A stretch of DNA of 39,958 nt from Metasolibacillus sp. (GTDB taxonomy: Bacteria > Bacillota > Bacilli > Bacillales_A > Planococcaceae): NCBI RefSeq assembly GCF_025291715.1, contig NZ_JAMBIZ010000033.1:1-39958 (forward strand). The letters run 5' to 3'. Position 1 is the first letter of the stretch. Each line of letters opens with the position of its first letter. The notes under the pieces were generated by a model. That model made no database searches, was not told where the DNA came from, and saw nothing but the letters and a program-made list of their open reading frames with translations. Shown here piece after piece: positions 142 to 14,933 of this stretch. Made by a program: the position numbers and the translations under genes.

Positions 142-1452
142 CTAACTATAACGCTTGGCAATCTGAAGCAATGGATCCCATACGCCATTAAACGGTGGCG
201 AATAGGATAAATCAATATCTAATAAATCGGGCAAGGTCATCTCTGCCGCTAGTGCCGTCGCAAAAACATCGATGCGCTTATCAACACCTGTGCCAACCGC
301 CTGTAAGCCAAGTAATTTTTGCGTATCTTTTTGTACAACCATGCGCAAATAAATCGGCTGTGCATCAGGATAATAGCCTGCAATATGATTCGCTTTATGC
401 GTATAAACATCGTACGCAAGCCCAAGCTTGTCCGCATCCTTTGATGTAACACCTGTCATGCCAATCCCTATGTCGAAAAACTTCAAAATCGCAGTGCCTG
501 CCACTCCTTTAAAGCTTGTTGCCTTGCCAGCCATATTAAGCCCTGCTACACGTCCTTGTTTATTCGCAGTTGTGCCTAGCGCAACATAGTCATATTCGCC
601 TTTTACATAATGGAAATGCGCTACGCAATCCCCTGCTGCATAAACATTCGGTAGCGATGTTTGCATATGCTCATCGACAATAATGGCACCATTATCCCAT
701 TGTTTTAGCTGGTCTGCAAAAGCAGTATTTGGTTTAATTCCTGTTGCGACAATGACAAGGTCTGTTGGATAGCTACCTTGCTCCGTTACAACAGCCTCCA
801 CCTGCTTTATTCCTGTAAAGCCTGTCACCTGTTCATTCAATAACACTTCTATACCCTGCTTCTGTGCCTCAGCTAACACATGCTCAGCTAGCTGTTCATC
901 AAGCAGTGACATAAGCTGTTTACCACGATGAATTAGACGCACTGCCAAATTGCGTTCTCTCATCGCCTCTACCACTTCAAGCGCAATATAGCCTGCCCCT
1001 AATACCGTAACATGACGTACATTTTGCAGGCTTTCTAGCAATTCATGCATTTGTGGAATCGTTTTTACCGTATGGATATTTTCCAAATGTGTGCCATCCC
1101 AATCAGGCATCGTCGGACTGGCACCTGTAGCGATTAATAATTTATCATATGGCACAGTAAAGGGCTCATCTTGATATTGCCCTTTCACAACCTGTGCCTC
1201 AAAGTCAATCTCCTGCACCTCATGTCGAATACGTGCATCAATACCTCTTTTGCGAAACTCTAGCGCAGAACGTGCAATTAAATTTTCCGGTGAGGAAATG
1301 CGCCCATCAATTACATACGGTAGCCCACATTGCCCATATGAGTAAATCTCTCCACGTTCAAGTGCTGTAATTTCTGCCTCCTCTACATTGCGTAAAATTT
1401 CCATTGCCGCACTCATACCAGCAGCATCTCCACCAATAATGACATATTTCAT
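142..1452 (-). CDS. cdr: CoA-disulfide reductase (FAD/NAD(P)-dependent)
   Basis: Predicted 436-aa cytoplasmic flavoprotein of the CoADR family, which reduces CoA disulfide (and in some members CoA persulfide) with NAD(P)H. An N-terminal FAD-binding Rossmann motif (GGDAAG, residues 7-12) is followed by the single active-site Cys42 in YGQCGLPY. A second Rossmann motif (GAGYIALE) for NAD(P)H lies mid-protein, and an ATGD-like FAD contact (AAGDC) in the C-terminal half. Length matches the 438-aa S. aureus enzyme. I chose the ATG at 1452 because GGGAGTG lies just upstream and the protein begins directly with the Rossmann strand; a longer frame runs upstream through a repeat. It follows the DUF418 gene on the same strand and may be co-transcribed with it. 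Confidence 0.88.
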   Translation of the reverse strand: MKYVIIGGDAAGMSAAMEILRNVEEAEITALERGEIYSYGQCGLPYVIDGRISSPENLIARSALEFRKRGIDARIRHEVQEIDFEAQVVKGQYQDEPFTVPYDKLLIATGASPTMPDWDGTHLENIHTVKTIPQMHELLESLQNVRHVTVLGAGYIALEVVEAMRERNLAVRLIHRGKQLMSLLDEQLAEHVLAEAQKQGIEVLLNEQVTGFTGIKQVEAVVTEQGSYPTDLVIVATGIKPNTAFADQLKQWDNGAIIVDEHMQTSLPNVYAAGDCVAHFHYVKGEYDYVALGTTANKQGRVAGLNMAGKATSFKGVAGTAILKFFDIGIGMTGVTSKDADKLGLAYDVYTHKANHIAGYYPDAQPIYLRMVVQKDTQKLLGLQAVGTGVDKRIDVFATALAAEMTLPDLLDIDLSYSPPFNGVWDPLLQIAKRYS

Positions 1453-1502
1453 CGCAATCACTCCCTTTATTTCATGATACATGAATTGCGACGAAATTGT
1501 GC

Positions 1503-2552
1503 CTAAATTGTTTGTGTGCCTGGCACTTTTTGTTTTGGTTTCCCTGTCATCCAACGCCACAATTTCTCCAACGGCCCAATATTAAAGAACTTAAAATAAA
1601 TTACGCTAAATACAACCTGAATAGCAAAAACCATTGGTGCAATGACGAGAATATCCTTTGAATTGACAACTTCAATGCCCATCATGCCCATAATTGCTAA
1701 AGCAATAAAGCTTTGTGCAATATAGTTTGTTAATGCCATGCGCCCAACCTTTGCAACAGGCTGAAATAGCTTGATTGCTGTTGGGTGAGAGAAAATCCAA
1801 AATGCTAAAATTAAATAGCAGTACGTAATCGGTACTGTACCTAGCGTGGTAATTTTCATTAATTGTCCGTTATTACCGATTGATGCAAACCAAATCCATA
1901 GCATACTACCTACTGCAAATGGTAGCAGCACAATAAATAACGTTTTTAATGGCTTCACTTCTTTTACACTTTGAATCCACCCTGCCTTGGACACATAAAA
2001 GCCAGATAAAAACATAATAAATACAAGCATTGAATCATTGCTAAAAAGGCTTGTAACAAATGAATCAGTTGCAGGAACAAACAGCGGTAATGCCGTTGCA
2101 ATCAAGTGAACAACGATAATTCCTATTAACCAATTGCGAATCGTCTTTAAGCTTGCTTTATAAAATGGCAGCAATAAAAAGCCTATCACTGCATAAAAGA
2201 CTAAAATTGAGCCCCAGAAAATAAAAATATGCACAACGCCAATTAAAAATAACGCAGCTAATCGACGAACAAAGCGCCATCTTGGCTTATCGCCCCTCGC
2301 CTCAGCACGCGATGCAAAAATATAAAAGCCAACCCCAAACAAAAATGAGAAAATGGAAAAGAACTTCTTTTCTACAAAAACATTAATTAACGAACTAATT
2401 GTTTTATTAATACCTGTAAAATCAGGCATCGGCCCACCTTCAACTAATACTTGGTAGCCTGCAATATTAATAAATAAAATACCAAACAAAGCAAAACCTC
2501 GAATAATATCGAGGGATTGAATTCTTTCTTTCGGTGTAACAGATGAACTCAT
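1503..2552 (-). CDS. DUF418 family multi-pass membrane protein (YeiB-like)
   Basis: A 349-aa protein starting with the typical RIQSLDIIRGFALFGILFIN segment of the DUF418/YeiB family, followed by about eight to ten hydrophobic helices. The C-terminal part has the conserved RMALTNYIAQS motif of DUF418. Its function is not established; members resemble membrane acyltransferases. GGGAG lies about 11 nt before the ATG. The last codons (VPGTQTI and stop) are encoded by copy B of a dispersed 20-nt repeat, so the native C-terminus may have been replaced. The CoA-disulfide reductase gene follows 50 nt downstream. Confidence 0.85.
   Translation of the reverse strand: MSSSVTPKERIQSLDIIRGFALFGILFINIAGYQVLVEGGPMPDFTGINKTISSLINVFVEKKFFSIFSFLFGVGFYIFASRAEARGDKPRWRFVRRLAALFLIGVVHIFIFWGSILVFYAVIGFLLLPFYKASLKTIRNWLIGIIVVHLIATALPLFVPATDSFVTSLFSNDSMLVFIMFLSGFYVSKAGWIQSVKEVKPLKTLFIVLLPFAVGSMLWIWFASIGNNGQLMKITTLGTVPITYCYLILAFWIFSHPTAIKLFQPVAKVGRMALTNYIAQSFIALAIMGMMGIEVVNSKDILVIAPMVFAIQVVFSVIYFKFFNIGPLEKLWRWMTGKPKQKVPGTQTI
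1507..1526 (-). repeat. 20-nt dispersed repeat, copy B (in coding 3' end)
   Basis: Identical over 20 nt and in the same orientation as the copy at 121-140. It overlaps the final codons of the DUF418 gene and supplies residues of its C-terminal tail just before the TAG stop. Confidence 0.7.
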
Positions 2553-5360: not shown

Positions 5361-5403
5361 TACTGAGTTATGAGCATTTACTTTATACGAGAAATCTTTC
5401 TCG

Positions 5404-5433
5404 TTGACATACCCCTCATAGGTATGGTAAATT
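5404..5433 (+). promoter_or_regulatory. csoR promoter with CsoR-like operator
   Basis: A -35 TTGACA (5404-5409) and a weaker -10 TAAATT (5428-5433) flank the 17-nt inverted repeat ATACCCCTCATAGGTAT (5409-5425). This resembles known CsoR sites (TACCC...GGGTA). The repressor would occupy the spacer and block RNA polymerase, giving autoregulation of csoR-copZ. Confidence 0.7.
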
Positions 5434-5459
5434 GAATATAACGATTGGAGGCGAGCATA

Positions 5460-5771
5460 ATGGAGCATACTGTTGATGAAACGATAGCTTGTCGAAAAAG
5501 CCATCACCCTGAGTCGGTAAAAAAAGATTTATCAACACGTTTGAATCGCATTGAAGGTCAAATTCGTGGCATAAAAGGCATGATTGAAAAGGATGTATAC
5601 TGCGACGATGTCATTACACAGCTAGCAGCAACACAATCTGCCCTCAACAGTGTCGCTAAAATTTTACTTGAAGGACATTTAAAGGGCTGTGTCGTAGACC
5701 GTCTATCAGAGGGCGACGATGCAGTAATAGATGAATTAGTTGTCACAATCCATAAATTAATGAAAAAATAA
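5460..5771 (+). CDS. csoR: Copper-sensing transcriptional repressor CsoR
   Basis: A 103-aa all-helical DUF156-family repressor. After a His/Cys-containing N-terminal tail come the DNA-binding RLNRIEGQIRG helix and the Cu(I) ligand triad Cys48, His73, Cys77 (YCDDV, EGHLKGC), the signature that separates CsoR from persulfide-sensing CstR. Cu(I) binding releases the repressor from its operator. The ATG at 5460 has GGAGG 8 nt upstream; an in-frame TTG at 5445 overlaps that site and is not used here. copZ follows 14 nt downstream in the same operon. Confidence 0.92.
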   Translation: MEHTVDETIACRKSHHPESVKKDLSTRLNRIEGQIRGIKGMIEKDVYCDDVITQLAATQSALNSVAKILLEGHLKGCVVDRLSEGDDAVIDELVVTIHKLMKK

Positions 5772-5785
5772 GGAGCGGATGAATT

Positions 5786-5992
5786 ATGCAAAACGTAACA
5801 TTAAATGTACAAGGTATGTCATGTGGTCATTGTGTGAAAGCAGTAGAAGGAAGCGTTGGTGAGCTTGCAGGTGTTGAGCAAGTAACAGTAAACCTAGAAG
5901 CTGCAACAGTTGCAGTCGCTTTTGATGAAGCGCAAGTAACTGTTGAGCAAATTAAAGAAACAATCGACGATCAAGGCTATGATGTCGAGTAA
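5786..5992 (+). CDS. copZ: Copper chaperone CopZ
   Basis: A 68-aa single HMA domain with the Cu(I)-binding motif GMSCGHC (Cys13, Cys16 region) and the usual beta-alpha-beta ferredoxin-like pattern ending DDQGYDVE. It carries Cu(I) to CopA and CsoR in the cytoplasm. AGGAG precedes the ATG. It is downstream of csoR and 79 nt upstream of copA. Confidence 0.93.
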   Translation: MQNVTLNVQGMSCGHCVKAVEGSVGELAGVEQVTVNLEAATVAVAFDEAQVTVEQIKETIDDQGYDVE

Positions 5993-6000
5993 CATTAAGT

Positions 6001-6030
6001 AGGGTGCTTCTGAAAAGCACTCTCTTCTTT
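6001..6030 (+). terminator. Attenuator-like hairpin between copZ and copA
   Basis: AGGGTGCTT and AAGCACTCT form a 9-bp stem with a 5-nt loop, followed by a pyrimidine-rich CTTCTTT. It could partly terminate csoR-copZ transcripts before copA. The T tract is imperfect. Confidence 0.4.
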
Positions 6031-6040
6031 ACAAAAATAT

Positions 6041-6057
6041 ATACCCCCATACAGTAT
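6041..6057 (+). promoter_or_regulatory. CsoR-like operator upstream of copA
   Basis: ATACCCCCATACAGTAT has the 17-nt length and the ATACCCC half-site of the csoR operator, but a weaker right half. It lies 15 nt before the copA start, so copA can be transcribed on its own under copper control. A TTTACA at 6028 may be the -35. Confidence 0.55.
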
Positions 6058-6071
6058 AAGAGGTGAGCAAA

Positions 6072-8474
6072 ATGGCAACAAAAGAAACAACCTTACAAAT
6101 TACAGGTATGACCTGTGCTGCCTGTGCAACACGCATTGAAAAAGGCTTAAATAAAATGGATGGTGTAGAGGAAGCAACCGTCAATTTAGCGCTTGAAAAA
6201 TCTGCTATTAAATATGATGCAGAGAAAATTAGCACTGCAGATTTAGAAAAGAAAATTGAAGCTTTAGGCTATGGAACAGTAAAAGAAAAAGCTGAGCTTA
6301 ACATTACAGGTATGACTTGCGCTGCTTGTGCAACACGCATTGAGAAAGGCTTAAATAAATTGCAAGGTGTGACAACAGCGAACGTCAACTTAGCTTTAGA
6401 AAGAGCAACAATCGAGTTTAATCCTAGTGAAATTTCCGTTACTGATATGATTGCTCGTGTTGAAAAGCTTGGCTATGGTGCCACACAGCCTATGGCACAG
6501 GAAACAACTGATCACCGTCAGCAGGCTATCCAAAAGCAAACACGTAAATTTATCGCAGCCGCAATTTTCGCACTGCCATTACTTTGGACGATGGTTGGAC
6601 ATTTCTCTTTTACATCATTTTTATATGTACCCGACTTTTTAATGAATCCTTGGGTGCAAATGGCGCTCGCAACACCTGTTCAATTTATTATCGGCTGGCA
6701 ATTTTACGTAAGTGCTTATAAAGCATTGCGCAACGGTAGTGCAAATATGGATGTCCTTGTAGCAATGGGCACATCTGCCGCCTATTTTTATAGTGTCTAT
6801 CAAGCAATTGCACACGGCAACTCACATCATGCGCAGCTTTACTTTGAAACAAGCGCTGTTTTAATTACACTCATTTTATTAGGAAAATTATTCGAGGCAA
6901 AAGCAAAAGGCCGCTCGTCTGAAGCGATTAAAAAATTAATGGGATTACAAGCAAAAACGGCTTTAGTCGTGCGTGATGGTATTGAAAAGGAAATTCCGTT
7001 AGAGGAAGTAGTCATTGGCGATATACTTTTAGTCAAACCAGGTGAAAAGATCCCTGTCGATGGCGAAGTAGTAGAAGGCAGCACAGCAGTAGATGAATCA
7101 ATGTTAACAGGCGAAAGCTTACCTGTTGATAAAAAAGTTGGCGATTTATTATTCGGTGCAACAGTCAATAACAATGGTTTTATCCGTATGAAAGCAACGA
7201 AGGTTGGGCGCGACACGGCGCTTGCGCAAATTATTAAAGTGGTGGAAGATGCACAAGGCTCTAAAGCACCAATTCAACGACTTGCTGACAAAATTTCAGG
7301 TGTTTTTGTACCTATTGTTGTTGGTATTGCTATATTAGCATTTATCGTTTGGATTACGCTCATCACGCCTGGCGAATTCACACCAGCACTTGAAGTTTTC
7401 ATTACGATTCTTGTCATTGCCTGCCCTTGTGCGCTAGGTCTTGCAACACCAACATCTATTATGGCTGGCTCAGGGCGCGCTGCTGAATTTGGCATTTTAT
7501 TTAAAGGCGGCGAGCATTTAGAGCAAACTGGTCATATTGATACAGTAGTTGTTGATAAAACAGGCACTGTCACATACGGTAAACCTGTTTTAACAGATGT
7601 ATTATTAGCTGATGCTACAGATGAAACGACTGTTTTATCATTAGTCGGTGCAGCAGAAAAGCAATCTGAGCATCCATTAGCACAAGCGATTGTGCAAGGA
7701 ATTGAAGAGCGTAACATCTCATTAGGCGATGTGCAATATTTCGAAGCAATTCCTGGCTATGGCGTACAGGCAACGGTTTCAGGGCAAGCTGTTATTGTCG
7801 GTACACGTAAATTAATGGCACAGTACGGTATCGACATTCACAATGTTTTATCGACAATGGAGGCACTAGAGAAAAACGGGAAAACGGCGATGCTTATAGC
7901 AATTAATGGGCAATATGCTGGCCTTGTAGCTGTTGCTGATACCGTGAAGGAAACATCGAAGGATGCAGTTGAACGCTTACAGGCCATGGGTATCGAAGTC
8001 ATTATGATGACAGGCGATAACGAGCGCACAGCCCAAGCAATTGGCGCAGAGGTTGGCGTTAATCAAGTGATTGCAGAGGTACTTCCAGAAGGTAAAGCAG
8101 AAGAAGTGAAAAAGCTACAAGCTATGGGTAAAAAAGTTGCGATGGTTGGCGATGGTATTAATGATGCCCCTGCCCTCGTTACAGCAGATATCGGTATGGC
8201 AATCGGAACAGGTACAGATATTGCGATGGAGGCAGCAGATATTACATTAATACGTGGCGATTTAAACGGCATTGCTGACGCCATTTTAATGAGTCGCAAA
8301 ACGATGCGCAACATTAAACAAAATCTGTTTTGGGCATTTGCCTACAACACATTAGGTATCCCGATTGCCGCAATCGGCTTGCTAGCACCTTGGGTAGCTG
8401 GTGCCGCAATGGCATTTAGCTCCGTTTCCGTTGTATTGAACGCCTTGCGCTTACAACGAGTAAAATTACATTAA
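6072..8474 (+). CDS. copA: Copper-exporting P1B-type ATPase CopA
   Basis: An 800-aa Cu(I)-exporting P-type ATPase. Two N-terminal HMA domains carry GMTCAAC (Cys15/Cys18 and Cys83/Cys86). About eight membrane helices follow, with the A-domain TGES, the ion-site CPC (ACPCALGL), the phosphorylation motif DKTGT, the N-domain SEHPLA and the hinge [10 protein letters not shown]. The ATG at 6072 has AGGTGAG upstream; the in-frame GTG at 6063 lies inside that site. The two HMA copies are unusually alike at the DNA level. A strong terminator follows the stop. Confidence 0.95.
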
Positions 8475-8475
8475 A

Positions 8476-8518
8476 AAAATCGCATGAAATCCTTTAATAC
8501 TGGATTTCATGCGATTTT
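8476..8518 (+). terminator. Strong terminator after copA
   Basis: A 17-bp perfect stem (8476-8492 with 8502-8518) with a 9-nt loop, ending in TTTT directly after the copA stop. Confidence 0.85.
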
Positions 8519-8534
8519 GTCATAAATTCTTCAA

Positions 8535-8562
8535 TTTGTACTATACCCCCCTATGCTATAAT
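8535..8562 (+). promoter_or_regulatory. Extended -10 promoter with CsoR-like operator
   Basis: TGCTATAAT (8554-8562) is an extended -10 with a perfect TATAAT, and TTTGTA at 8535 is a possible -35. The 17-nt ATACCCCCCTATGCTAT (8543-8559) overlaps the -10 and has the length and C-rich half-site of the copper-type operators upstream of csoR and copA. This predicts copper control of the lipoprotein gene. Confidence 0.6.
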
Positions 8563-8590
8563 TTTATTAAAATAAGGAGGCGAATATTTT

Positions 8591-9061
8591 ATGAAAAAGC
8601 TAAGATTTAGTTTGATAGCTATCGTTTTACTATTAGCTGCATGTAGCTTAAAGGAAGAATCCCACGATGGACATGAGCATGTAAATGGTGATATTCAGGA
8701 GGAAACAGCAAGTGCTGAAATATTACCAGCTTTTTTAAATGAACAGCCTGAAAATATTCGTTTAACATATCAAATTGCAGGGCAAGCAACAGATTTATTA
8801 GAATGGATTCCTTGCTATTGTGGCTGTGGTGAGTCAGCAGGACATCGCAGCAATTTAAATTGCTTTATAAAGGAAGTGAAGGAAGATGGTGCTGTTGTTT
8901 GGGATGACCATGGCACACGCTGTCTTGCCTGCCTAGAGATTGCCTTACAATCAGCGAAAATGTACAAAGAAGGTGCAGATTTGAAGGAAATCCGCCAAAC
9001 GATTGATGAATTGTATAAGGAAGGCTATGCCCAGCCAACAGATACTCCATTCCCAGCTTAA
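8591..9061 (+). CDS. PCYCGC-motif lipoprotein, probable copper-binding
   Basis: A 156-aa exported lipoprotein. The signal peptide ends in lipobox LLAAC (Cys18), then a His-rich stretch (HDGHEH, residues 25-30), then the PCYCGCG motif (Cys75, Cys77, Cys79) with further Cys at 91, 111 and 114. The spacing of these cysteines defines the PCYCGC family, whose role is not firmly known. Six cysteines, the His patch, the CsoR-like operator and the position after copA suggest a surface metal-binding or metal-handling protein. AAGGAGG precedes the ATG, and a terminator follows. The copper role is inferred. Confidence 0.85.
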   Translation: MKKLRFSLIAIVLLLAACSLKEESHDGHEHVNGDIQEETASAEILPAFLNEQPENIRLTYQIAGQATDLLEWIPCYCGCGESAGHRSNLNCFIKEVKEDGAVVWDDHGTRCLACLEIALQSAKMYKEGADLKEIRQTIDELYKEGYAQPTDTPFPA

Positions 9062-9654: not shown

Positions 9655-10578
9655 CTACTTTGGCAAATGCTGCAAAAAATTTCGCCCTGCAAAGCCACGT
9701 ACCTCGTCCTCTGTATAATATTTCAATAGTTCATTTAATAAATTAGGATGCTGGCTCGCATTTTCCAGCTGCGGCACCTTTATATCTATCCCATCAAAAT
9801 CAGAGCCCAAGCCAATTAAATGTTTACCACCAAGTGCACAAATATGATCAACATGCTTGATTAAATCAGCAATTGTCGCATTGCCTTGCGCTTCAATAAA
9901 GAGCGGATAATAAACAAGATGAATTGGTGCATTTTTCGCCACCATTGCCTTTATTTGTTCATCGCTTAAATTTCTGCGATGCGCGCATAATGCCTTCGCA
10001 TTGGAATGTGAGGCAATTACATAATCTGCAAGCTCCAATGTATCCCAAAAGCTTTTTTCACTTAAATGAGAAACGTCTGTGAATATTTTATGTGTATTAT
10101 TTTGTTGAATAATTTCCTGTCCAAATGCTGTTACCCCGCGTCCTAAATCTTCATCTGCGCCGTCCGCAGCCTCATTCGCATTATTCCATGTTAAACCGAT
10201 GCTTAACACACCGAGCTCACGGAATAAATGCCACATTTTGATATCCCCCTCGAAGAAATCAACACCTTCAATCGTCAAAAATGCACCAATTTCATCGCTC
10301 TGTAAGCGTTCAATATCTGACCAATTTTTAATATGTACTACTTTATTTTCTGGTCGTATAACATGTGTTTGAAAATAATAGATTTGACGCAGCGCAGATT
10401 TTATTTTTTCCGATTTCGGTGTAGTTGGCTGAATAAAGATAGCAAATGCTTGCACCTTCACATTACCCTGTCTTAAATGTTGCAAATTCACATCAAATGG
10501 AGCAGTGGAAAAATCATATTCCTTTTTCTCATATTTATAGAGTACGTCACAATGTAAATCAATAATTGGTAATCGCAT
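9655..10578 (-). CDS. M19 membrane dipeptidase (renal dipeptidase family)
   Basis: A 307-aa zinc amidohydrolase-fold peptidase. The metal-binding HxD is at His9/Asp11 (DLHCD), the bridging Glu is in LTIEGVDFF, and the DVSHLSE and ASHSN motifs carry later His ligands; GLGSDFDG follows near the C-terminus. The family cleaves dipeptides, including D-amino-acid substrates. There is no signal peptide, so it is cytoplasmic despite the family name. The ATG at 10578 matches family N-termini. Its only ribosome site (GGGGGA) lies inside the 3' arm of the terminator hairpin that ends the TauE transcript, an unusual arrangement. Confidence 0.88.
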   Translation of the reverse strand: MRLPIIDLHCDVLYKYEKKEYDFSTAPFDVNLQHLRQGNVKVQAFAIFIQPTTPKSEKIKSALRQIYYFQTHVIRPENKVVHIKNWSDIERLQSDEIGAFLTIEGVDFFEGDIKMWHLFRELGVLSIGLTWNNANEAADGADEDLGRGVTAFGQEIIQQNNTHKIFTDVSHLSEKSFWDTLELADYVIASHSNAKALCAHRRNLSDEQIKAMVAKNAPIHLVYYPLFIEAQGNATIADLIKHVDHICALGGKHLIGLGSDFDGIDIKVPQLENASQHPNLLNELLKYYTEDEVRGFAGRNFLQHLPK

Positions 10579-10583
10579 GTAAA

Positions 10584-10625
10584 AATCCCCCTTTCGATAC
10601 ATTATGCTGCATCGAAAGAGGGATT
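10584..10625 (-). terminator. Terminator hairpin overlapping the dipeptidase ribosome site
   Basis: A 15-bp stem (10611-10625 with 10584-10598, one G-U pair) is followed by TTTTT on the minus strand. It ends the sulfur operon after tauE. The 3' arm contains the GGGGGA that must serve the dipeptidase start at 10578. Confidence 0.8.
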
Positions 10626-10632
10626 GCTACTA

Positions 10633-11397
10633 TTACATATCAAGCCAGATTTTAATCGCTGTTGCTAAAATCAACAAGGCTAAAATGATTTGCAAAGCTT
10701 TTGTGTTTAATGTTTTACCAACCTTTGCCCCTAAAGGAGCCGCAATGATGCTAGCAACAATCATAATAGCCGCTGCTGCATAATCGACCTGTCCTGTTAC
10801 AAGCTTGCCAACGCTACCTCCAATAGATGAAATAAAGGTAATTGCAAGACTTGTAGCAATCGTCATTCGTGTTGGTATTTTTAAGACCACAAGCAAAATT
10901 GGAACAAGTAGAAATCCTCCTGCCGCCCCAACAATGCCTGAGCCTACCCCGACAATAAACGCAAGCACTGCAGCAAGTGGCTTATGATAGGTTACTTGTG
11001 CTAACGGTTGGTCATCTAGCTGCTTCTTCGGTACAAACATCATGATCGCTGCAATGGTTGCCAACACTCCATAAACGATATTCACACTTGCTTCTGATAA
11101 ACTAGTTGAACCGAAGCTCCCAACAAAACTCCCCACCAAAATCGCACTTCCCATCGTTGCGATTAGCGATTTATTTAAATACCCACCTTTACGATATGCC
11201 CATACGCCTGCAATAGAGGCAAAAAGTACTTGCACTGCGCTAATACCAGACACTTCATGTGCGGTAAAGGTTGCCACACCAAATAATGGCGGGATATATA
11301 GAAGCATTGGGTATTTAATAATGGAACCGCCAACGCCGAGCATGCCTGAAATAAATGAGCCGATAAAACCAATCGCAAACAATACGATGATAAACAT
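10633..11397 (-). CDS. TauE/SafE family sulfite exporter (YrkJ-like)
   Basis: A 254-aa membrane protein with about eight helices and two internally similar halves (GMLGVGGSIIKYP and GAAGGFLLVPIL), the hallmark of the TauE/SafE family of sulfur-compound exporters. The last gene of the sulfide cluster, 10 nt after the TusA gene, with GGAGAA upstream. The persulfide dioxygenase of the same cluster produces sulfite, so export of sulfite (or thiosulfate) is the likely job. Position and order match B. subtilis yrkJ. Substrate inferred from context. Confidence 0.88.
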   Translation of the reverse strand: MFIIVLFAIGFIGSFISGMLGVGGSIIKYPMLLYIPPLFGVATFTAHEVSGISAVQVLFASIAGVWAYRKGGYLNKSLIATMGSAILVGSFVGSFGSTSLSEASVNIVYGVLATIAAIMMFVPKKQLDDQPLAQVTYHKPLAAVLAFIVGVGSGIVGAAGGFLLVPILLVVLKIPTRMTIATSLAITFISSIGGSVGKLVTGQVDYAAAAIMIVASIIAAPLGAKVGKTLNTKALQIILALLILATAIKIWLDM

Positions 11398-11407
11398 AAA
11401 AGTTCTC

Positions 11408-11635
11408 CTACGCCTTTTTTATACGGAATATTAGCACATCAGCTTGCTCTGTTTGCTCAATAATTTCATGTCCTCCTGCACTTGCCCATGCAGGAATATC
11501 TGCTAATGCCCCCTTATCCGTTACATGCACCTCTAAAATATCGCCTGTTGTTAATGCATCCATCGCTTTCTTTGTACGTACAATTGGCATCGGACACGCT
11601 AAGCCCTTTGCATCTAAAATCATTGTTTTTTCCAT
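11408..11635 (-). CDS. TusA-family sulfur carrier (YrkI-like)
   Basis: A 75-aa TusA/SirA domain with the persulfide-carrying Cys14 in the GLACPMPIVRTKKAM signature (CPxP). It accepts and passes on sulfane sulfur in the cytoplasm. Three ATGs stand in tandem; the third (11635) is 8 nt from AGGAGG and is preferred over those at 11641 and 11638. It lies between the dioxygenase and the exporter genes, as in the yrkH-yrkI-yrkJ order. The same signature is in the TusA-rhodanese protein upstream, so the operon codes for two TusA domains. Confidence 0.88.
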   Translation of the reverse strand: MEKTMILDAKGLACPMPIVRTKKAMDALTTGDILEVHVTDKGALADIPAWASAGGHEIIEQTEQADVLIFRIKKA

Positions 11636-11687
11636 CATCATTTCCTCCTCTGTTTTATTGGGCGAATCGCTACTTTAAACTAAAAAT

Positions 11688-12806
11688 TTATCTCACTGCA
11701 CAGCGATTCGGTCCAATTTCCATTTCTGTCTGCTCATCGTAGTTCGGTTTTAATTTTCCCATATTGACATAACGAATTTGCTTATAGGCATTTGGCTGCG
11801 GTGGTAAATGATCCGTTACCGTTTTGCGGAATTCCTCTGCATCTTCAATATTCAATCCATGATTTTCTGCAAATAAATCTCCTAAACGCTTCGCTACTGA
11901 GCCGTCTGCATTCAGCTCCTCCACAATCATAAAATGTGCTGGCAAGACAATCAGCTCATCAATTAGTTCTCGATAACGGTCATACAATGTTGTACGCAAG
12001 TCATCTACCCAATCCTCTGCTAATCCTGCTAAATCAGGACGACCAATGGAATCAATAAATAAAATATCCCCCGTTAATAAATAGCGACTATCAATAACAA
12101 ATGACGTTGAGCCAATTGTATGCCCTGGGGAGTACAATGCCTCGATATTTACCGAGCCGATTTGTACCTTTAGCCCATCTAATACATCATGAAAATCAAA
12201 CACGACTTCCTCTGCATCCTTTGGTGGTAAATAATACGTAGCACCTGTTATTTCAGCAATTTTGCGTCCACCTGAAATATGATCAGCATGTAAATGCGTA
12301 TCGAAAACATGTGTAATTGTGACGTTTTTCTCTTTAGCAAAATTGATAAATACATCTGTAAAGCGCACCGCATCAATCACAGCTGCCTCCCCATTTGCCA
12401 TAACCATATAGGATAAGCAGCCTTTACCTAAGCGTACAAATTGATACAGCTCTCCCCCATCTGTTAAATCACCTATTTTGATTGGTTCAATATGTGTGCT
12501 CCAAGACTTCATACCTCCTGCTAAGTAAGCGGCTTCTCGTCCTTCTGCCTCTAACATTTGGGCAATCATTACGGAGGAGCCCTCTTTCGCACATACTACT
12601 AATAGCTCACGATCTGTTGGAATTTGTGGCAATATTTCCTCCACACCATCCAATAGCTCAAAATACGGGATATTTAAATATTCGAATTGCTTACCTTCAA
12701 TTTTCCAATCCTCAAATGCCTCTTTGTTGCGTACATCTAAAATAAATAATTGCTCATTATCGATTACTTTGCGTGCTACTTGAGCCGCTGTCCATGCTTT
12801 TGCCAT
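11688..12806 (-). CDS. Rhodanese-persulfide dioxygenase fusion (YrkH/CstB-like)
   Basis: A 372-aa two-domain protein. Residues 1-105 are a rhodanese domain with active-site Cys72 in CAKEGSS. Residues 115-372 are an ETHE1-type metallo-beta-lactamase-fold dioxygenase with THLHADH (His171, His173, Asp175, His176), SPGHT (His229), TGD (Asp246) and PAH (His291). It would oxidise low-molecular-weight persulfides to sulfite, with the rhodanese moving sulfane sulfur. The domain order (rhodanese first) is the reverse of S. aureus CstB and like B. subtilis YrkH. ATG 12806 is preferred over an in-frame TTG at 12812; the GGGGGT ribosome site lies within a CstR-like operator. Confidence 0.9.
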
Positions 12807-12812
12807 CTTCAA

Positions 12813-12828
12813 TTACCCCCATAGGTAT
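12813..12828 (-). promoter_or_regulatory. CstR-like operator inside the sulfur operon
   Basis: The plus-strand sequence TTACCCCCATAGGTAT has the 16-nt geometry of the sites before cstR and the DsrE gene, with one changed outer base. It lies in the 30-nt gap upstream of the dioxygenase gene, suggesting an internal CstR-controlled promoter. An A+T-rich stretch just upstream could supply a -10, but no clear -35 is visible. Confidence 0.5.
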
Positions 12829-12836
12829 TATTTTAT

Positions 12837-13394
12837 TTAAAAAATTTTTTCTAATGTACCTTGCCATTCAACCATTCCTGGCACCACATTATAAACATTG
12901 TCGAAGCCTGCGCTCGCTAATTTTTTCGCTGCTAAATCGCTGCGCTTAGCTGTGCGACAAATAACATAAATCGGCTGCTCCTTTGCTAGCTCATGCATAC
13001 GGGCATCTAGCTCACCTAACGGAATTGATTTTGCACCTGCAATATGTCCAAATGCATATTCCACTGCCTCGCGTACATCTAAAATGATACCGTCTGTTAA
13101 GCTAAGCAATTGCTCATTTGACACAGTTTGTGGAAAAGGTGTTTCCACAATACCCTCATTTGAGCATTTGCGTACATAATGATAAAGAACATCCCCCTGT
13201 ACCGTTGTACCAATATATTGATGTCCGACTGACTGTGCCCATGCTGCTAAATCTGCTGTTGAGCCTTTATCTGTTGCCTGTACCTCTAAAATTTGCCCAT
13301 CAATTAAATCTGTCATCGCCTTTTTCGTGCGCACAATCGGCATTGGACATGCTAAACCTTTTGCATCAATTTGTCTATCTGCCTTTATTGTCAT
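12837..13394 (-). CDS. TusA-rhodanese fusion protein (YrkF/CstA-like)
   Basis: A 185-aa sulfurtransferase. A TusA domain (residues 1-75) with Cys16 in GLACPMP is joined to a rhodanese domain (about 90-185) with Cys146 in CRTAKRS. An extra Cys77 lies in the linker (YVRKCSNE). It is a two-domain version of S. aureus CstA, which is rhodanese-TusA-rhodanese, and matches B. subtilis YrkF. AGGAGG precedes the ATG at 13394, which overlaps the stop of the upstream rhodanese gene. It probably relays persulfide between small thiols, the other rhodaneses and the dioxygenase. Confidence 0.9.
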   Translation of the reverse strand: MTIKADRQIDAKGLACPMPIVRTKKAMTDLIDGQILEVQATDKGSTADLAAWAQSVGHQYIGTTVQGDVLYHYVRKCSNEGIVETPFPQTVSNEQLLSLTDGIILDVREAVEYAFGHIAGAKSIPLGELDARMHELAKEQPIYVICRTAKRSDLAAKKLASAGFDNVYNVVPGMVEWQGTLEKIF

Positions 13395-13711
13395 TGTACT
13401 TCCTCCTGTTCCATAGCATCTTGCCACGCTAGCATTCCTCCTACCATATTAGTAACGTCATAGCCTTGCTCCTGTAAAAACGCTGTTGCTCGCCCACTGC
13501 GCGCACCTGAGCGACAGACGATAATATATGGCGTATTTTTATCTAGTTCATGCATGCGAAATTCCAGCAGCCCTAATGGAATATGAAGAATGCCTGGAAT
13601 ATGCCCTTGCTGTACTTCATCCACTTCTCGTACATCAAGCAAATGCACTGTTTCACCTACCAGTATACGTTGCTGTACTTGTTCCACTAAAATTTCCTTC
13701 ACTTTTATCAT
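13391..13711 (-). CDS. Single-domain cytoplasmic rhodanese
   Basis: A 106-aa rhodanese with active-site Cys66 in the CRSGARS loop and the CDC25-like tail GGMLAWQDAM. No signal or membrane segment. Starts at 13720, 13711 and a GTG a few codons later are all open; I chose 13711 because it forms an ATGA overlap with the upstream gene's stop. It is one of four rhodanese domains in this operon, and this gene is absent from the B. subtilis yrk cluster as I recall it. It probably accepts or passes on sulfane sulfur. Confidence 0.85.
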   Translation of the reverse strand: MIKVKEILVEQVQQRILVGETVHLLDVREVDEVQQGHIPGILHIPLGLLEFRMHELDKNTPYIIVCRSGARSGRATAFLQEQGYDVTNMVGGMLAWQDAMEQEEVQ

Positions 13712-14055
13712 CCTCTCCATGCATTCATACCACCGCGTATATTTGTAATATTGTTATAGCCTAATTTCTTTAACTGCTTACATGCTTGTGCACTGCGCAT
13801 ACCACTTTGGCAAATAACGAAAATTTCTTGATTCTTTGGCAAGTGTGAAAAATCTGTGCCAAGTGGCATATTTTTAGCTTGTGGAATATGTCGTCCTTTA
13901 TATTCAGCAGGTGTACGCACATCAATAAATAACTTGTTACGATCATTAATAATACTTGCCAGCTCCTCAGTAGAAATTGTTTTTACACCTTTTGCTGGCA
14001 TCATTCGCCATACAATTAAAGCTACGATAGCAGCAGCTATAATAAAACCAGTCAC
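13708..14055 (-). CDS. Membrane-anchored rhodanese
   Basis: A 115-aa protein with one N-terminal transmembrane helix (residues 3-19) and a rhodanese domain with Cys82 in CQSGMRS, ending GGMNAWRG. The positive residues after the helix place the catalytic domain in the cytoplasm, at the membrane. It starts at GTG 14055, with a GGGGGG ribosome site 8 nt upstream. The stop overlaps the next rhodanese start. A membrane-bound rhodanese beside a sulfide cluster could receive sulfur from a membrane quinone reductase, but no sqr gene is in this window. Confidence 0.87.
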   Translation of the reverse strand: MTGFIIAAAIVALIVWRMMPAKGVKTISTEELASIINDRNKLFIDVRTPAEYKGRHIPQAKNMPLGTDFSHLPKNQEIFVICQSGMRSAQACKQLKKLGYNNITNIRGGMNAWRG

Positions 14056-14059
14056 TTAA

Positions 14060-14075
14060 ATACCCCCCACCCTAT
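14060..14075 (-). promoter_or_regulatory. Possible degenerate CstR half-site
   Basis: The plus-strand ATACCCCCCACCCTAT keeps one C-rich half-site of the operator but lacks the GGTAT partner. It also serves as the G-rich ribosome site of the membrane rhodanese, so it may be coincidence. Confidence 0.25.
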
Positions 14076-14548
14076 ATAAATAGATTGACATGCCCTTGCT
14101 CAGCATCTGCTAAATAGGCAGCTACACCCGCATAATGGACACCATCTAAAAGCTCTTCTTTTTGAAGTCCCAATAAATCCATTGTCATCGTACATGATAC
14201 GAGCTTAATATCTTGCTCCTGTGCCATCTCAATAAGCTGTGTGAGTGTTAATGCATTATGCTTTTTCATGACATGCTTAATCATTTTTGGTCCCATGCCA
14301 AGCATCTGCATTTTTGACAAACCAAGCTGTTCCGCACCGCGTGGCATCATGCGCCCGAACATTTTCTCTAAAAATCCCTTTTGCACTTCGGCAGGCTGCT
14401 GCCTGCGCAATGCATTAATACCCCAGAACGTATGAAAAATCGTTACGTCATGGTCATAAGCTGCTGCACCATTAGCAATGATATATGCTGCCATCGCCTT
14501 GTCATAATCTCCACTAAACAATACAATCGTCGTTCTTTTCTTTTCCAT
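14072..14548 (-). CDS. DsrE/DsrF/DrsH-like family protein (YrkE-like)
   Basis: A 158-aa soluble sulfur-carrier-like protein of the DsrE superfamily (YrkE group). It starts with the strand TTIVLFSGDYDKAMAAY, carries a Met/Gly-rich insert (MMPRGAEQLGLSKMQMLGMG) typical of this subgroup, and has a conserved Cys119 in LVSCTMTMDLLG that can hold a persulfide. GGAGG lies 6 nt before the ATG at 14548. It is the first structural gene after cstR and has its own CstR-like operator. Likely a persulfide carrier working with the TusA and rhodanese partners. Confidence 0.87.
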   Translation of the reverse strand: MEKKRTTIVLFSGDYDKAMAAYIIANGAAAYDHDVTIFHTFWGINALRRQQPAEVQKGFLEKMFGRMMPRGAEQLGLSKMQMLGMGPKMIKHVMKKHNALTLTQLIEMAQEQDIKLVSCTMTMDLLGLQKEELLDGVHYAGVAAYLADAEQGHVNLFI

Positions 14549-14561
14549 TGTCCGCCTCCAT

Positions 14562-14577
14562 ATACCCCTACAGGTAT
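14562..14577 (-). promoter_or_regulatory. CstR-like operator upstream of the DsrE gene
   Basis: ATACCCCTACAGGTAT is a 16-nt imperfect inverted repeat with ATACC/GGTAT arms, directly upstream of the ribosome site. With the site before cstR it suggests two operators at the head of the operon, as described for the S. aureus cst system. Confidence 0.65.
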
Positions 14578-14608
14578 TTATTTTCACAAAATAGAAAGCC
14601 GCACTAAT

Positions 14609-14869
14609 TTAACGGCTTTTTACTAATAAACTAACGGCCTCTTGAATTGAAGCATTGATTTCCTCGGTATTCTCGCCAGCCTTCTGCACACATTCAACAA
14701 GATTTTCGCTAACAATTACACCGATAGCTCTATCTACGCCTGAACGCACCGCCGACAATTGGGTAATGACATCTCGGCAATCCTGACCTTCTTCCATCAT
14801 ACGCAAAATGCCGCGCAATTGTCCCTCCATGCGTTTTACACGATTCATTACTTTGTTATCATATGTCAC
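14609..14869 (-). CDS. cstR: Persulfide-sensing repressor CstR
   Basis: An 86-aa CsoR/DUF156-family repressor. Numbered from the GTG at 14869 (GGAGGT lies 8 nt upstream), the two cysteines fall at Cys31 and Cys60, the positions used by S. aureus CstR to form di- and trisulfide links. The Cu ligand His of CsoR is replaced (SENLVEC), so it is a sulfur rather than a copper sensor. It heads the sulfide detoxification operon, in the place held by yrkD in B. subtilis, and has a palindromic operator in its own promoter. Confidence 0.92.
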   Translation of the reverse strand: MTYDNKVMNRVKRMEGQLRGILRMMEEGQDCRDVITQLSAVRSGVDRAIGVIVSENLVECVQKAGENTEEINASIQEAVSLLVKSR

Positions 14870-14904
14870 TATACAGCACCTCCAGACATCGATTGATAAC
14901 ACTT

Positions 14905-14933
14905 ATATTATACCCCATCGGGTATTTAGTCAA
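14905..14933 (-). promoter_or_regulatory. cstR promoter with CstR operator
   Basis: On the minus strand a -35 TTGACT (14928-14933) is followed after 17 nt by TAATAT, or after 15 nt by TATAAT, in the string TATAATAT. The inverted repeat ATACCCCATCGGGTAT (14910-14925, ATACCC/GGGTAT arms) fills the spacer and touches the -10. Confidence 0.75.

What the first reader, a model, noticed from the sequence alone, without database searches (positions are those of the whole stretch)
10633..14933. Extended yrk/cst-type sulfide detoxification operon with four rhodanese domains, two TusA domains and a CstR
Order on the minus strand: cstR, DsrE, membrane rhodanese, soluble rhodanese, TusA-rhodanese, rhodanese-dioxygenase, TusA, TauE. 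The cysteines of CstR sit at 31 and 60 exactly as in S. aureus, and the order follows B. subtilis yrkD-yrkJ. The two extra rhodaneses, one membrane-anchored, suggest a membrane-to-cytosol relay of sulfane sulfur ending in oxidation and export. No sqr is present, so the electron path for sulfide oxidation must lie elsewhere in the genome.
Basis: partly seen in the sequence, partly recalled or inferred. Interest (0 to 1): 0.7.

Follow-up and report, generated by a model that had tools for sequence, protein, structure and literature searches.

The report
Persulfide-sensing sulfur detoxification operon, three operators
A gene cluster that probably senses and burns off reactive sulfur is really here and is laid out much as in its relatives, but no sulfide-oxidising partner enzyme was found in the genome, and a third likely repressor-binding site, kept in many relatives, doubles as the ribosome-binding site of its key oxygen-using enzyme.

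Summary
On the minus strand lie cstR, dsrE2, membrane rhodanese, soluble rhodanese, tusA-rhodanese, rhodanese-persulfide dioxygenase (PDO), tusA and tauE. CstR has cysteines at 31 and 60.

The layout is not an unusual extension. 26 of 40 family loci that I chose across genera carry both extra rhodaneses. B. licheniformis yrkD-yrkJ is the characterised cousin (PMC9918477).

(1) SQR is not "elsewhere": none was found in this genome or in a one-contig same-species genome. Of 151 family genomes, 122 have the PDO and 15 a strong SQR; 111 of the 122 lack one. The operon therefore probably clears per/polysulfide rather than H2S.

(2) There are three CstR-type operators, TACCN4GGGGTA, the only exact ones in this 3.83 Mb assembly. 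The third lies on the Shine-Dalgarno of the PDO gene. It is exact in 70 of 129 orthologous copies and 0 of 17 divergent copies.

CstR binding at the third site is inferred, not shown. A known kind of operon with a regulatory twist.

The parts
14928..14933 (-). -35 box (TTGACT) of the cstR promoter
   Evidence: Promoter-like site TTGACT-17-TAATAT; 21 of 24 operator sites upstream of cstR in the fetched loci have TTGAC in the 24 bases before them
14911..14924 (-). operator 1, TACCCGATGGGGTA, inside the 17-bp spacer between -35 and -10 of the cstR promoter
   Evidence: exact site near the cstR start in 23 of the 28 loci where cstR was placed
14905..14910 (-). -10 box (TAATAT)
14609..14869 (-). 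cstR (yrkD-like), persulfide-sensing CsoR-family repressor, 86 aa, Cys31 and Cys60
   Evidence: Trns_repr_metal 85 bits; 52-56% identity to annotated staphylococcal CstR; best PDB match 7mq1/7mq2, 7MQ2 being called CstR in PMC9774590
14563..14576 (-). operator 2, TACCTGTAGGGGTA, 14 bp before the dsrE2 start
   Evidence: exact site near the dsrE2 start in 11 of 27 loci
14072..14548 (-). dsrE2 (yrkE-like) sulfur carrier, 158 aa
   Evidence: DrsE_2 223.5 bits; PDB 3pnx E 5.3e-34
13708..14055 (-). membrane-anchored single-domain rhodanese, active-site loop CQSGMRS
   Evidence: Rhodanese 75.2 bits; hydrophobic N-terminus
13391..13720 (-). soluble single-domain rhodanese, loop CRSGARS; overlaps the genes on both sides
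   Evidence: Rhodanese 67.1 bits
12837..13394 (-). TusA-rhodanese fusion (yrkF-like), CPMP motif and loop CRTAKRS
   Evidence: TusA 66.8 and Rhodanese 63.4 bits
12814..12827 (-). operator 3, TACCTATGGGGGTA; its right half (GGGGGT) is the likely Shine-Dalgarno of the PDO gene, 7 bases before the ATG
   Evidence: exact pattern at 70 of 129 orthologous PDO starts and 0 of 17 divergent copies; TACC arm beside a GGRGG ribosome site in 31 of 43 PDO starts and 8 of 120 other operon gene starts
11688..12806 (-). rhodanese-persulfide dioxygenase fusion (yrkH-like), 372 aa; THLHADH, PGHT and GD metal motif and rhodanese loop CAKEGSS, invariant in 13 aligned sequences
   Evidence: best folds in the PDB are 3r2u (S. 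aureus), 3tp9, ETHE1 and PDO-rhodanese structures
11408..11641 (-). tusA (yrkI-like) sulfur carrier
   Evidence: TusA 84.5 bits
10633..11397 (-). tauE (yrkJ-like) putative sulfite/thiosulfate exporter
   Evidence: TauE 164.6 bits

Best explanation
It is a CstR-controlled sulfane-sulfur disposal operon. CstR sits on operator 1, inside the spacer of its own promoter, and on two downstream operators. Persulfide or polysulfide links Cys31 to Cys60 of neighbouring subunits, CstR lets go, and the operon is transcribed. The rhodaneses, TusA and DsrE2 proteins pass sulfane sulfur from cellular persulfides to the rhodanese-PDO, which oxidises it with O2 to sulfite; sulfite or thiosulfate leaves through TauE. 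No SQR was found, so the usual load is probably persulfide and polysulfide from cysteine or cystine breakdown or from outside, not H2S oxidised by SQR. Operator 3 probably gives tighter shut-off of the O2-using enzyme, by blocking RNA polymerase at its start or repressing a weak internal promoter; as RNA its right half is the ribosome-binding site. Shown here: gene content and order, catalytic residues, SQR not found, operator sequences and their conservation. From the literature on relatives: the CstR switch, and two regions bound by YrkD. Inferred: every step of sulfur transfer, PDO activity of this protein, TauE substrate, CstR binding to all three operators, and the effect of operator 3.
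For: Domains and order. PDO fold: 20 of the 22 best Foldseek chains are 3r2u, 3tp9, ETHE1-type (2gcu as ETHE1 is recalled) or named PDO/SdoA structures, with glyoxalase-II-type chains from rank 23 on. CstR: each of the 122 PDO genomes has a CstR-like match at E <= 1e-16, and the 10 genomes without one all lack the PDO (Fisher p 1.6e-8; not corrected for kinship; the matches were not inspected one by one). Operators: the only three exact sites in the own assembly; operator 1 sits between -35 and -10. Operator 3 occurs exactly in at least one member of 14 of the 16 genera with PDO orthologues. B. licheniformis: YrkD binds IR1 and IR2, elemental sulfur abolishes binding, and yrkH is induced by elemental sulfur (PMC9918477). 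SQR.
Against: No expression, binding or enzyme data from this organism. YrkH is only a 'hypothetical' PDO in B. licheniformis too. Operator 3 is exact in only 70 of 129 orthologues, and 36 of 129 keep not even the TACC arm; it is absent in all 15 copies of genus g8 and present in 1 of 16 of g3. B. licheniformis has an ordinary Shine-Dalgarno there (L053). The 14-mer is not specific to the operon: 148 of 151 family genomes hold at least one and many hold sites elsewhere; the same-species genome has a fourth. The reversed control occurs three times in the own genome. SQR absence rests on one B. licheniformis query (312 aa of a truncated copy) and on reading 19 of 24 PF07992 matches; two of those proteins, L015 and L016, give matches to a type III SQR model far below its cut-off (62.5 and 49.5 against 525 bits).
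Confidence: 0.75

Rival explanations
1. Operator 3 is not an operator: it is only the Shine-Dalgarno sequence, and TACC in front of it is accident or shared descent.
For: The G-tract is exactly where a Shine-Dalgarno belongs (the site begins 21-25 bases before the aligned PDO start in 27 of 27 sites), and where the pattern is lost a GGAGG often stands at the same place. All loci are related, so counts are not independent.
Against: TACC arm beside a GGRGG ribosome site: 31 of 43 PDO starts against 8 of 120 for the other operon genes pooled (5 of the 8 at TusA-rhodanese and 3 at DsrE2). 14 orthologues keep TACC where the G-tract carries A. 0 of 17 divergent PDO copies have it. The sequence around it varies.
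Confidence: 0.25
2. Operator 3 acts as RNA: UACC pairs with GGUA and hides the ribosome site of PDO until something opens it.
For: The half-sites are complementary as RNA, and the Shine-Dalgarno is inside.
Against: Only four pairs; the same motif sits at operator 1 in the promoter spacer, upstream of the expected transcription start. No compensatory changes seen by eye in the non-matching sequences. No folding test was run.
Confidence: 0.1
3. The operon serves sulfur assimilation or delivery (thiosulfate use, thio-cofactors, tRNA thiolation) rather than detoxification.
For: BpPRF, a related PDO-rhodanese, was proposed to serve sulfur assimilation (recalled). The only two TusA matches of the genome are here. 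No SQR found.
Against: A CstR-type repressor and an exporter in the same operon point to induced disposal. B. licheniformis deletion of yrkE-ydfQ raises sensitivity to cysteine, sulfide and sulfur (PMC9918477).
Confidence: 0.15
4. It is a full H2S-oxidation pathway, with an NDH-2-like, CoA-disulfide-reductase-like or other flavoprotein acting as the quinone-linked sulfide oxidase.
For: The NDH-2-like protein at C10:31345 gives weak matches to SQR, and a second protein (L016, C14:2583) a weak match to the type III SQR model. A CoA-disulfide-reductase-like gene lies at 142-1560 of the same contig.
Against: 26% identity over 118 residues only; scores far below the model's cut-off; none carries an exact operator. 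The PDO occurs without a strong SQR in 111 of 122 family genomes.
Confidence: 0.1

Closest known systems
[quoted passage not shown]
   Same: Repressor of the CstR type first, then DsrE, TusA-rhodanese, Rhod-PDO, TusA, TauE in the same order; YrkD binds IR1 and IR2, which I read from the text as the regions before yrkD and before yrkE, matching operators 1 and 2
   Different: Window has two further rhodaneses and an operator-like site on the PDO ribosome site; no nreBC-sqr-pdo module behind tauE; a B. licheniformis plasmid copy has a plain Shine-Dalgarno before yrkH (L053)
Staphylococcus aureus cst operon (cstR, tauE, cstA, cstB, sqr)
   Same: CstR with Cys31/Cys60, TauE, sulfurtransferases, PDO; a single directly regulated operon proposed for S. 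aureus (PMC5480029, passages), and all three exact sites in this one operon here
   Different: CstA fuses RHOD, TusA and DsrE (PMC9918477), separate genes here; in 3r2u (S. aureus; that it is CstB is recalled) the PDO domain precedes the rhodanese-like part, while the window's enzyme has rhodanese first; no sqr found here
Rhod-PDO operons of other Planococcaceae and Bacillaceae (for example L032 Metasolibacillus meyeri, L050 Cytobacillus plasmid, L055 Sporosarcina plasmid)
   Same: Same genes in the same order, two extra rhodaneses included
   Different: Many have a second, small DsrE-like gene before PDO (28 of 40 loci; also L050 and L055), and L050 a glutaredoxin gene; both absent in the window
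Burkholderia PRF (5ve3), Alicyclobacillus 3tp9, human ETHE1 (4chl), Beggiatoa PDO (8zbd)
   Same: Fold of the dioxygenase domain and matching sequence blocks around the metal motif
   Different: Domain order and rhodanese position, or no rhodanese; 19-26% identity in the structure alignments

Membership tests
CstR (persulfide-sensing CsoR-family repressor) | CsoR-family protein with two cysteines at positions 31 and 60, no Cu-binding His before the second Cys | tested here: met
   Trns_repr_metal hit; Cys31 and Cys60 by count from GTG 14869; NLVEC at the second Cys against HLKGC in the paralogue at 5445-5771. That the His marks copper sensors is recalled.
CstR (persulfide-sensing CsoR-family repressor) | G-tract pseudo-palindromic operator at the sulfurtransferase operon | tested here: met
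   Three TACCN4GGGGTA sites; G-tract pseudo-palindromes as the family's sites: abstract start of PMC3902906 and passages of PMC10318464. Binding not tested.
CstR (persulfide-sensing CsoR-family repressor) | Derepression by per/polysulfide through Cys31-Cys60 linkage | not testable with these tools
   Needs protein chemistry
yrk operon (B. licheniformis type) | Order yrkD-E-F-H-I-J | tested here: met
   against the order in PMC9918477
yrk operon (B. licheniformis type) | Downstream nreBC-sqr-pdo module | tested here: not met
   TauE is followed by an M19 dipeptidase gene; no SQR found in the genome. With the Rhod-PDO as query the own genome shows one other, weak match (C11:80799, 33% over 83 residues, 215-aa frame); a CstB-type pdo was not sought with its own query.
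S. aureus cst operon | sqr in or linked to the operon | tested here: not met
S. aureus cst operon | cstA three-domain fusion and CstB with PDO first | tested here: not met
   Separate genes; rhodanese precedes PDO
Persulfide dioxygenase | MBL fold with HxHxDH, second His, bridging Asp | tested here: met
   H171, H173, D175, H176, H229, D247 invariant in 13 sequences; fold matches. That these are the metal ligands is from recalled ETHE1/MBL chemistry.
Persulfide dioxygenase | O2-dependent oxidation of a thiol persulfide, mononuclear Fe(II) | not testable with these tools
   Needs enzymology
TauE sulfite exporter | TauE/SafE membrane protein family | tested here: met
   PF01925 164.6 bits; substrate untested

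The most novel reading that the evidence does not exclude
In much of this family the third CstR operator has been built into the Shine-Dalgarno of the dioxygenase gene, so one 14-base element serves as repressor site on DNA and ribosome site on RNA, giving persulfide-gated, gene-specific control of the O2-consuming step inside an operon that works without SQR on sulfane sulfur rather than on H2S.
Probability: 0.5. Interest if true: 0.5.

Novelty: new variant of a known kind. Interest (0 to 1): 0.35.

Why it matters
It suggests that the sulfane-sulfur half of the cst/yrk pathway usually runs without SQR in this family (111 of 122 genomes with the PDO lack a strong SQR), so a CstR operon need not mean H2S oxidation. 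It also offers a conserved test case of an internal operator merged with a ribosome-binding site. The operon itself is ordinary for the family.

Tried and rejected
Rejected: that the layout is a lineage oddity. Rejected: that an SQR is to be expected elsewhere in the genome. Rejected: that the operators belong to the copper-type CsoR next to copA; there is no site with up to one mismatch near 5400-6063. Hairpins before PDO seen by eye in several relatives are not in the window's species, so I left them out of the model. Sigma-70 and terminator scans gave no clear excess over shuffles (16 promoter-like sites against a mean of 19.7; 6 terminators against 4.3); only the cstR promoter is used here, because relatives keep it. 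NCBIfam had no model above its cut-off for these eight genes. Window bases beyond about 17,000 were not studied.

Papers: PMC9918477, parts 1-3 of 8 and passages read; PMC5480029, PMC10318464 and PMC9774590, passages only; all others, search listings only. I saw no title or abstract start about a CstR or YrkD operator merged with a ribosome site in the listings (20 of 37 papers listed; 15 of 25 listed; whose three papers use CSTR for a reactor); the library holds open-licence papers only, and the original S. aureus CstR papers were not read.

Slips: one search gave the CstR query in the wrong frame, so its table has no CstR column; corrected. One search read 12 loci on the wrong strand; redone. 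In one search the spacing count runs to the first ATG/GTG/TTG triplet in any frame, so I use the aligned starts instead.
Full report
What is there. The four rhodanese domains keep a cysteine in the active-site loop (CQSGMRS, CRSGARS, CRTAKRS, CAKEGSS), and both TusA domains keep CPMP; these are read directly from the sequence, and their catalytic meaning is recalled. The genome has 9 rhodanese matches in all, 4 of them here, and 2 TusA matches, both here. The CstR start that fits its relatives is GTG 14869, which puts the cysteines at 31 and 60, the pair that PMC9774590 reports as cross-linked in S. aureus CstR (passages).

Is it unusual? No. I searched 151 genomes of the family with the Rhod-PDO: 122 have it at E <= 1e-60, 120 of them by an orthologous copy and two (G012, G030) only by a 42-43% copy. 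I fetched 40 loci from 40 of those 122 genomes, chosen by me to cover the genera, four of them from the window's own genus. The order cstR, dsrE2, membrane rhodanese, soluble rhodanese, tusA-rhodanese, (small dsrE), PDO, tusA, tauE recurs; the membrane rhodanese was placed in 26 of 40, always with the soluble one, the soluble one in 30 of 40, and a second small DsrE-like gene in 28 of 40. Named records agree: Metasolibacillus meyeri and others (laid out), and annotated Cytobacillus and Sporosarcina plasmids, which add a small DsrE gene and, in Cytobacillus, a glutaredoxin gene. The characterised cousin is yrkD-yrkJ of B. licheniformis (PMC9918477).

No SQR. Using an intact 312-residue part of a B. 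licheniformis SQR (L053), the own genome gives one weak match, 26% over 118 residues of an NDH-2-like protein. Among 24 PF07992 matches I could read 19 (18 proteins) and saw no SQR; L027 and the four matches without a locus were not resolved. Two of the proteins read, L015 and L016, match a type III SQR model far below its cut-off (62.5 and 49.5 against 525 bits). In 151 family genomes 17 match the SQR query at E <= 1e-10, 15 of them strongly (51-65% identity, E <= 1e-100), so the query works in this family. PDO and SQR do not go together: 11 of 15 genomes with a strong SQR have the PDO, and 111 of 136 without (Fisher p 0.49). So in most of the family this operon must draw its sulfane sulfur from another source, unless an unrecognised enzyme does SQR's work.

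The dioxygenase. The Rhod-PDO matches PDO structures by sequence (3tp9, 3r2u, 8zbd, 4ysb). An AlphaFold model (mean pLDDT 81.9; residues 249-262 and 369-372 below 50) finds 3r2u, 3tp9, ETHE1 and PDO-rhodanese structures first, with glyoxalase II and beta-lactamases later; two of the top 22 chains, 4efz, are an unassigned Burkholderia metallo-beta-lactamase. The metal motif and rhodanese cysteine C72 are invariant in 13 aligned sequences. Activity is inferred.

Three operators. The pattern TACCN4GGGGTA occurs at 14911-14924, 14563-14576 and 12814-12827, and nowhere else in the 3.83 Mb assembly. The reversed control pattern also occurs three times in the genome, the same-species genome G002 has four sites, and 148 of 151 family genomes hold at least one, many outside the operon. 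So the count is ordinary; the place is not. Operator 1 fills the spacer between TTGACT and TAATAT of the cstR promoter; in the 40 loci, TTGAC lies in the 24 bases before 21 of 24 sites upstream of cstR, 2 of 11 upstream of dsrE2 and 0 of 27 upstream of PDO. An exact site lies near the start of cstR in 23 of 28, dsrE2 in 11 of 27, PDO in 27 of 40, tusA-rhodanese in 3 of 39, soluble rhodanese in 1 of 30, tusA in 1 of 35, membrane rhodanese in 0 of 26, tauE in 0 of 37 and small dsrE in 0 of 28.

Operator 3 and the ribosome site. I took all 146 PDO copies listed, the window's among them (sequences), and split them into 129 orthologues (64-100% identity, 120 genomes) and 17 divergent copies (42-58%). 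The exact pattern stands just before the gene in 70 of 129 orthologues, in at least one member of 14 of 16 genera, and in 0 of 17 divergent copies; it is missing from all 15 copies of genus g8 and both of g13, and found in 1 of 16 in g3. A further 14 orthologues keep it with A in the G-tract and 9 keep only the TACC arm; 36 have none. In the 27 exact sites of the 40 loci the operator begins 21-25 bases before the aligned start, so its right half, GGGGGT, is where the Shine-Dalgarno is; where the operator is lost, GGAGG often stands there. The TACC arm sits beside a GGRGG ribosome site in 31 of 43 PDO starts (three of the 43 are divergent copies) and 8 of 120 other starts in these operons (loci are related, so the p value of 2e-16 is only a guide). 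In B. licheniformis YrkD was tested on the regions harbouring promoters, IR1, IR2 and IR9 (passages); a B. licheniformis plasmid copy has a plain Shine-Dalgarno before yrkH (L053).

How it probably works. CstR represses at operator 1; persulfide cross-links CstR and the operon is made; sulfurtransferases load the Rhod-PDO; sulfite or thiosulfate leaves through TauE. CstR at operators 2 and 3 would add a barrier inside the operon. At operator 3 there is no room for a promoter downstream of the site, so a roadblock or an upstream weak promoter is the likely mode. Binding and effect are untested.

Verdict. A real, ordinary operon of its family, of a known kind, with two points worth keeping: no SQR was found in this genome or in most relatives that have the operon's dioxygenase, and it carries an internal operator-like site, kept in many relatives, merged with the ribosome site of the dioxygenase gene. 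The checking round changed wording and added contrary counts; the odds stand.

Noticed in passing
142-1560 (-): CoA-disulfide-reductase-like flavoprotein without a rhodanese domain, below the NCBIfam cut-offs (428.7 against 578.8 and 408.9 against 458 bits); could reduce persulfides, about 9 kb from the operon.
   Followed up: partly
5445-9061 (+): Copper-type CsoR paralogue (HLKGC motif), then a CopA-like P-type ATPase and a PCYCGC lipoprotein: two members of one repressor family lie about 9 kb apart.
   Followed up: no
9655-10602 (-): M19 membrane dipeptidase gene directly downstream of tauE, also downstream in L032 and L033; whether it belongs to the transcript is unknown.
   Followed up: no
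L099, L102, L109, L110, L116, L117, L122, L128, L132, just before PDO: Hairpin-like inverted repeats of quite different sequence followed by an A-rich tract stand before operator 3 (by eye, not folded) but not in the window's species; possible transcript-processing element.
   Followed up: no
L054:9317-10045 (+): A Geobacillus plasmid has, in one reading frame, a methyltransferase-like part followed by a CstR-like repressor (by eye).
   Followed up: no
L051 (CP065518.1) and CP031730.1: Plasmid records labelled Stenotrophomonas rhizophila carry a Lysinibacillus-like cstR and Rhod-PDO (73.3% and 77.7% identity to the window); possibly mislabelled or mixed cultures.
   Followed up: no
L101, L111, L112 (genera g2, g8): A second PDO copy, 56-58% identical, lies upstream of cstR in the same cluster.
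   Followed up: partly
L101, L129, L135 before tusA-rhodanese: A further operator-like site stands before the tusA-rhodanese gene in 3 of 39 loci.
   Followed up: no
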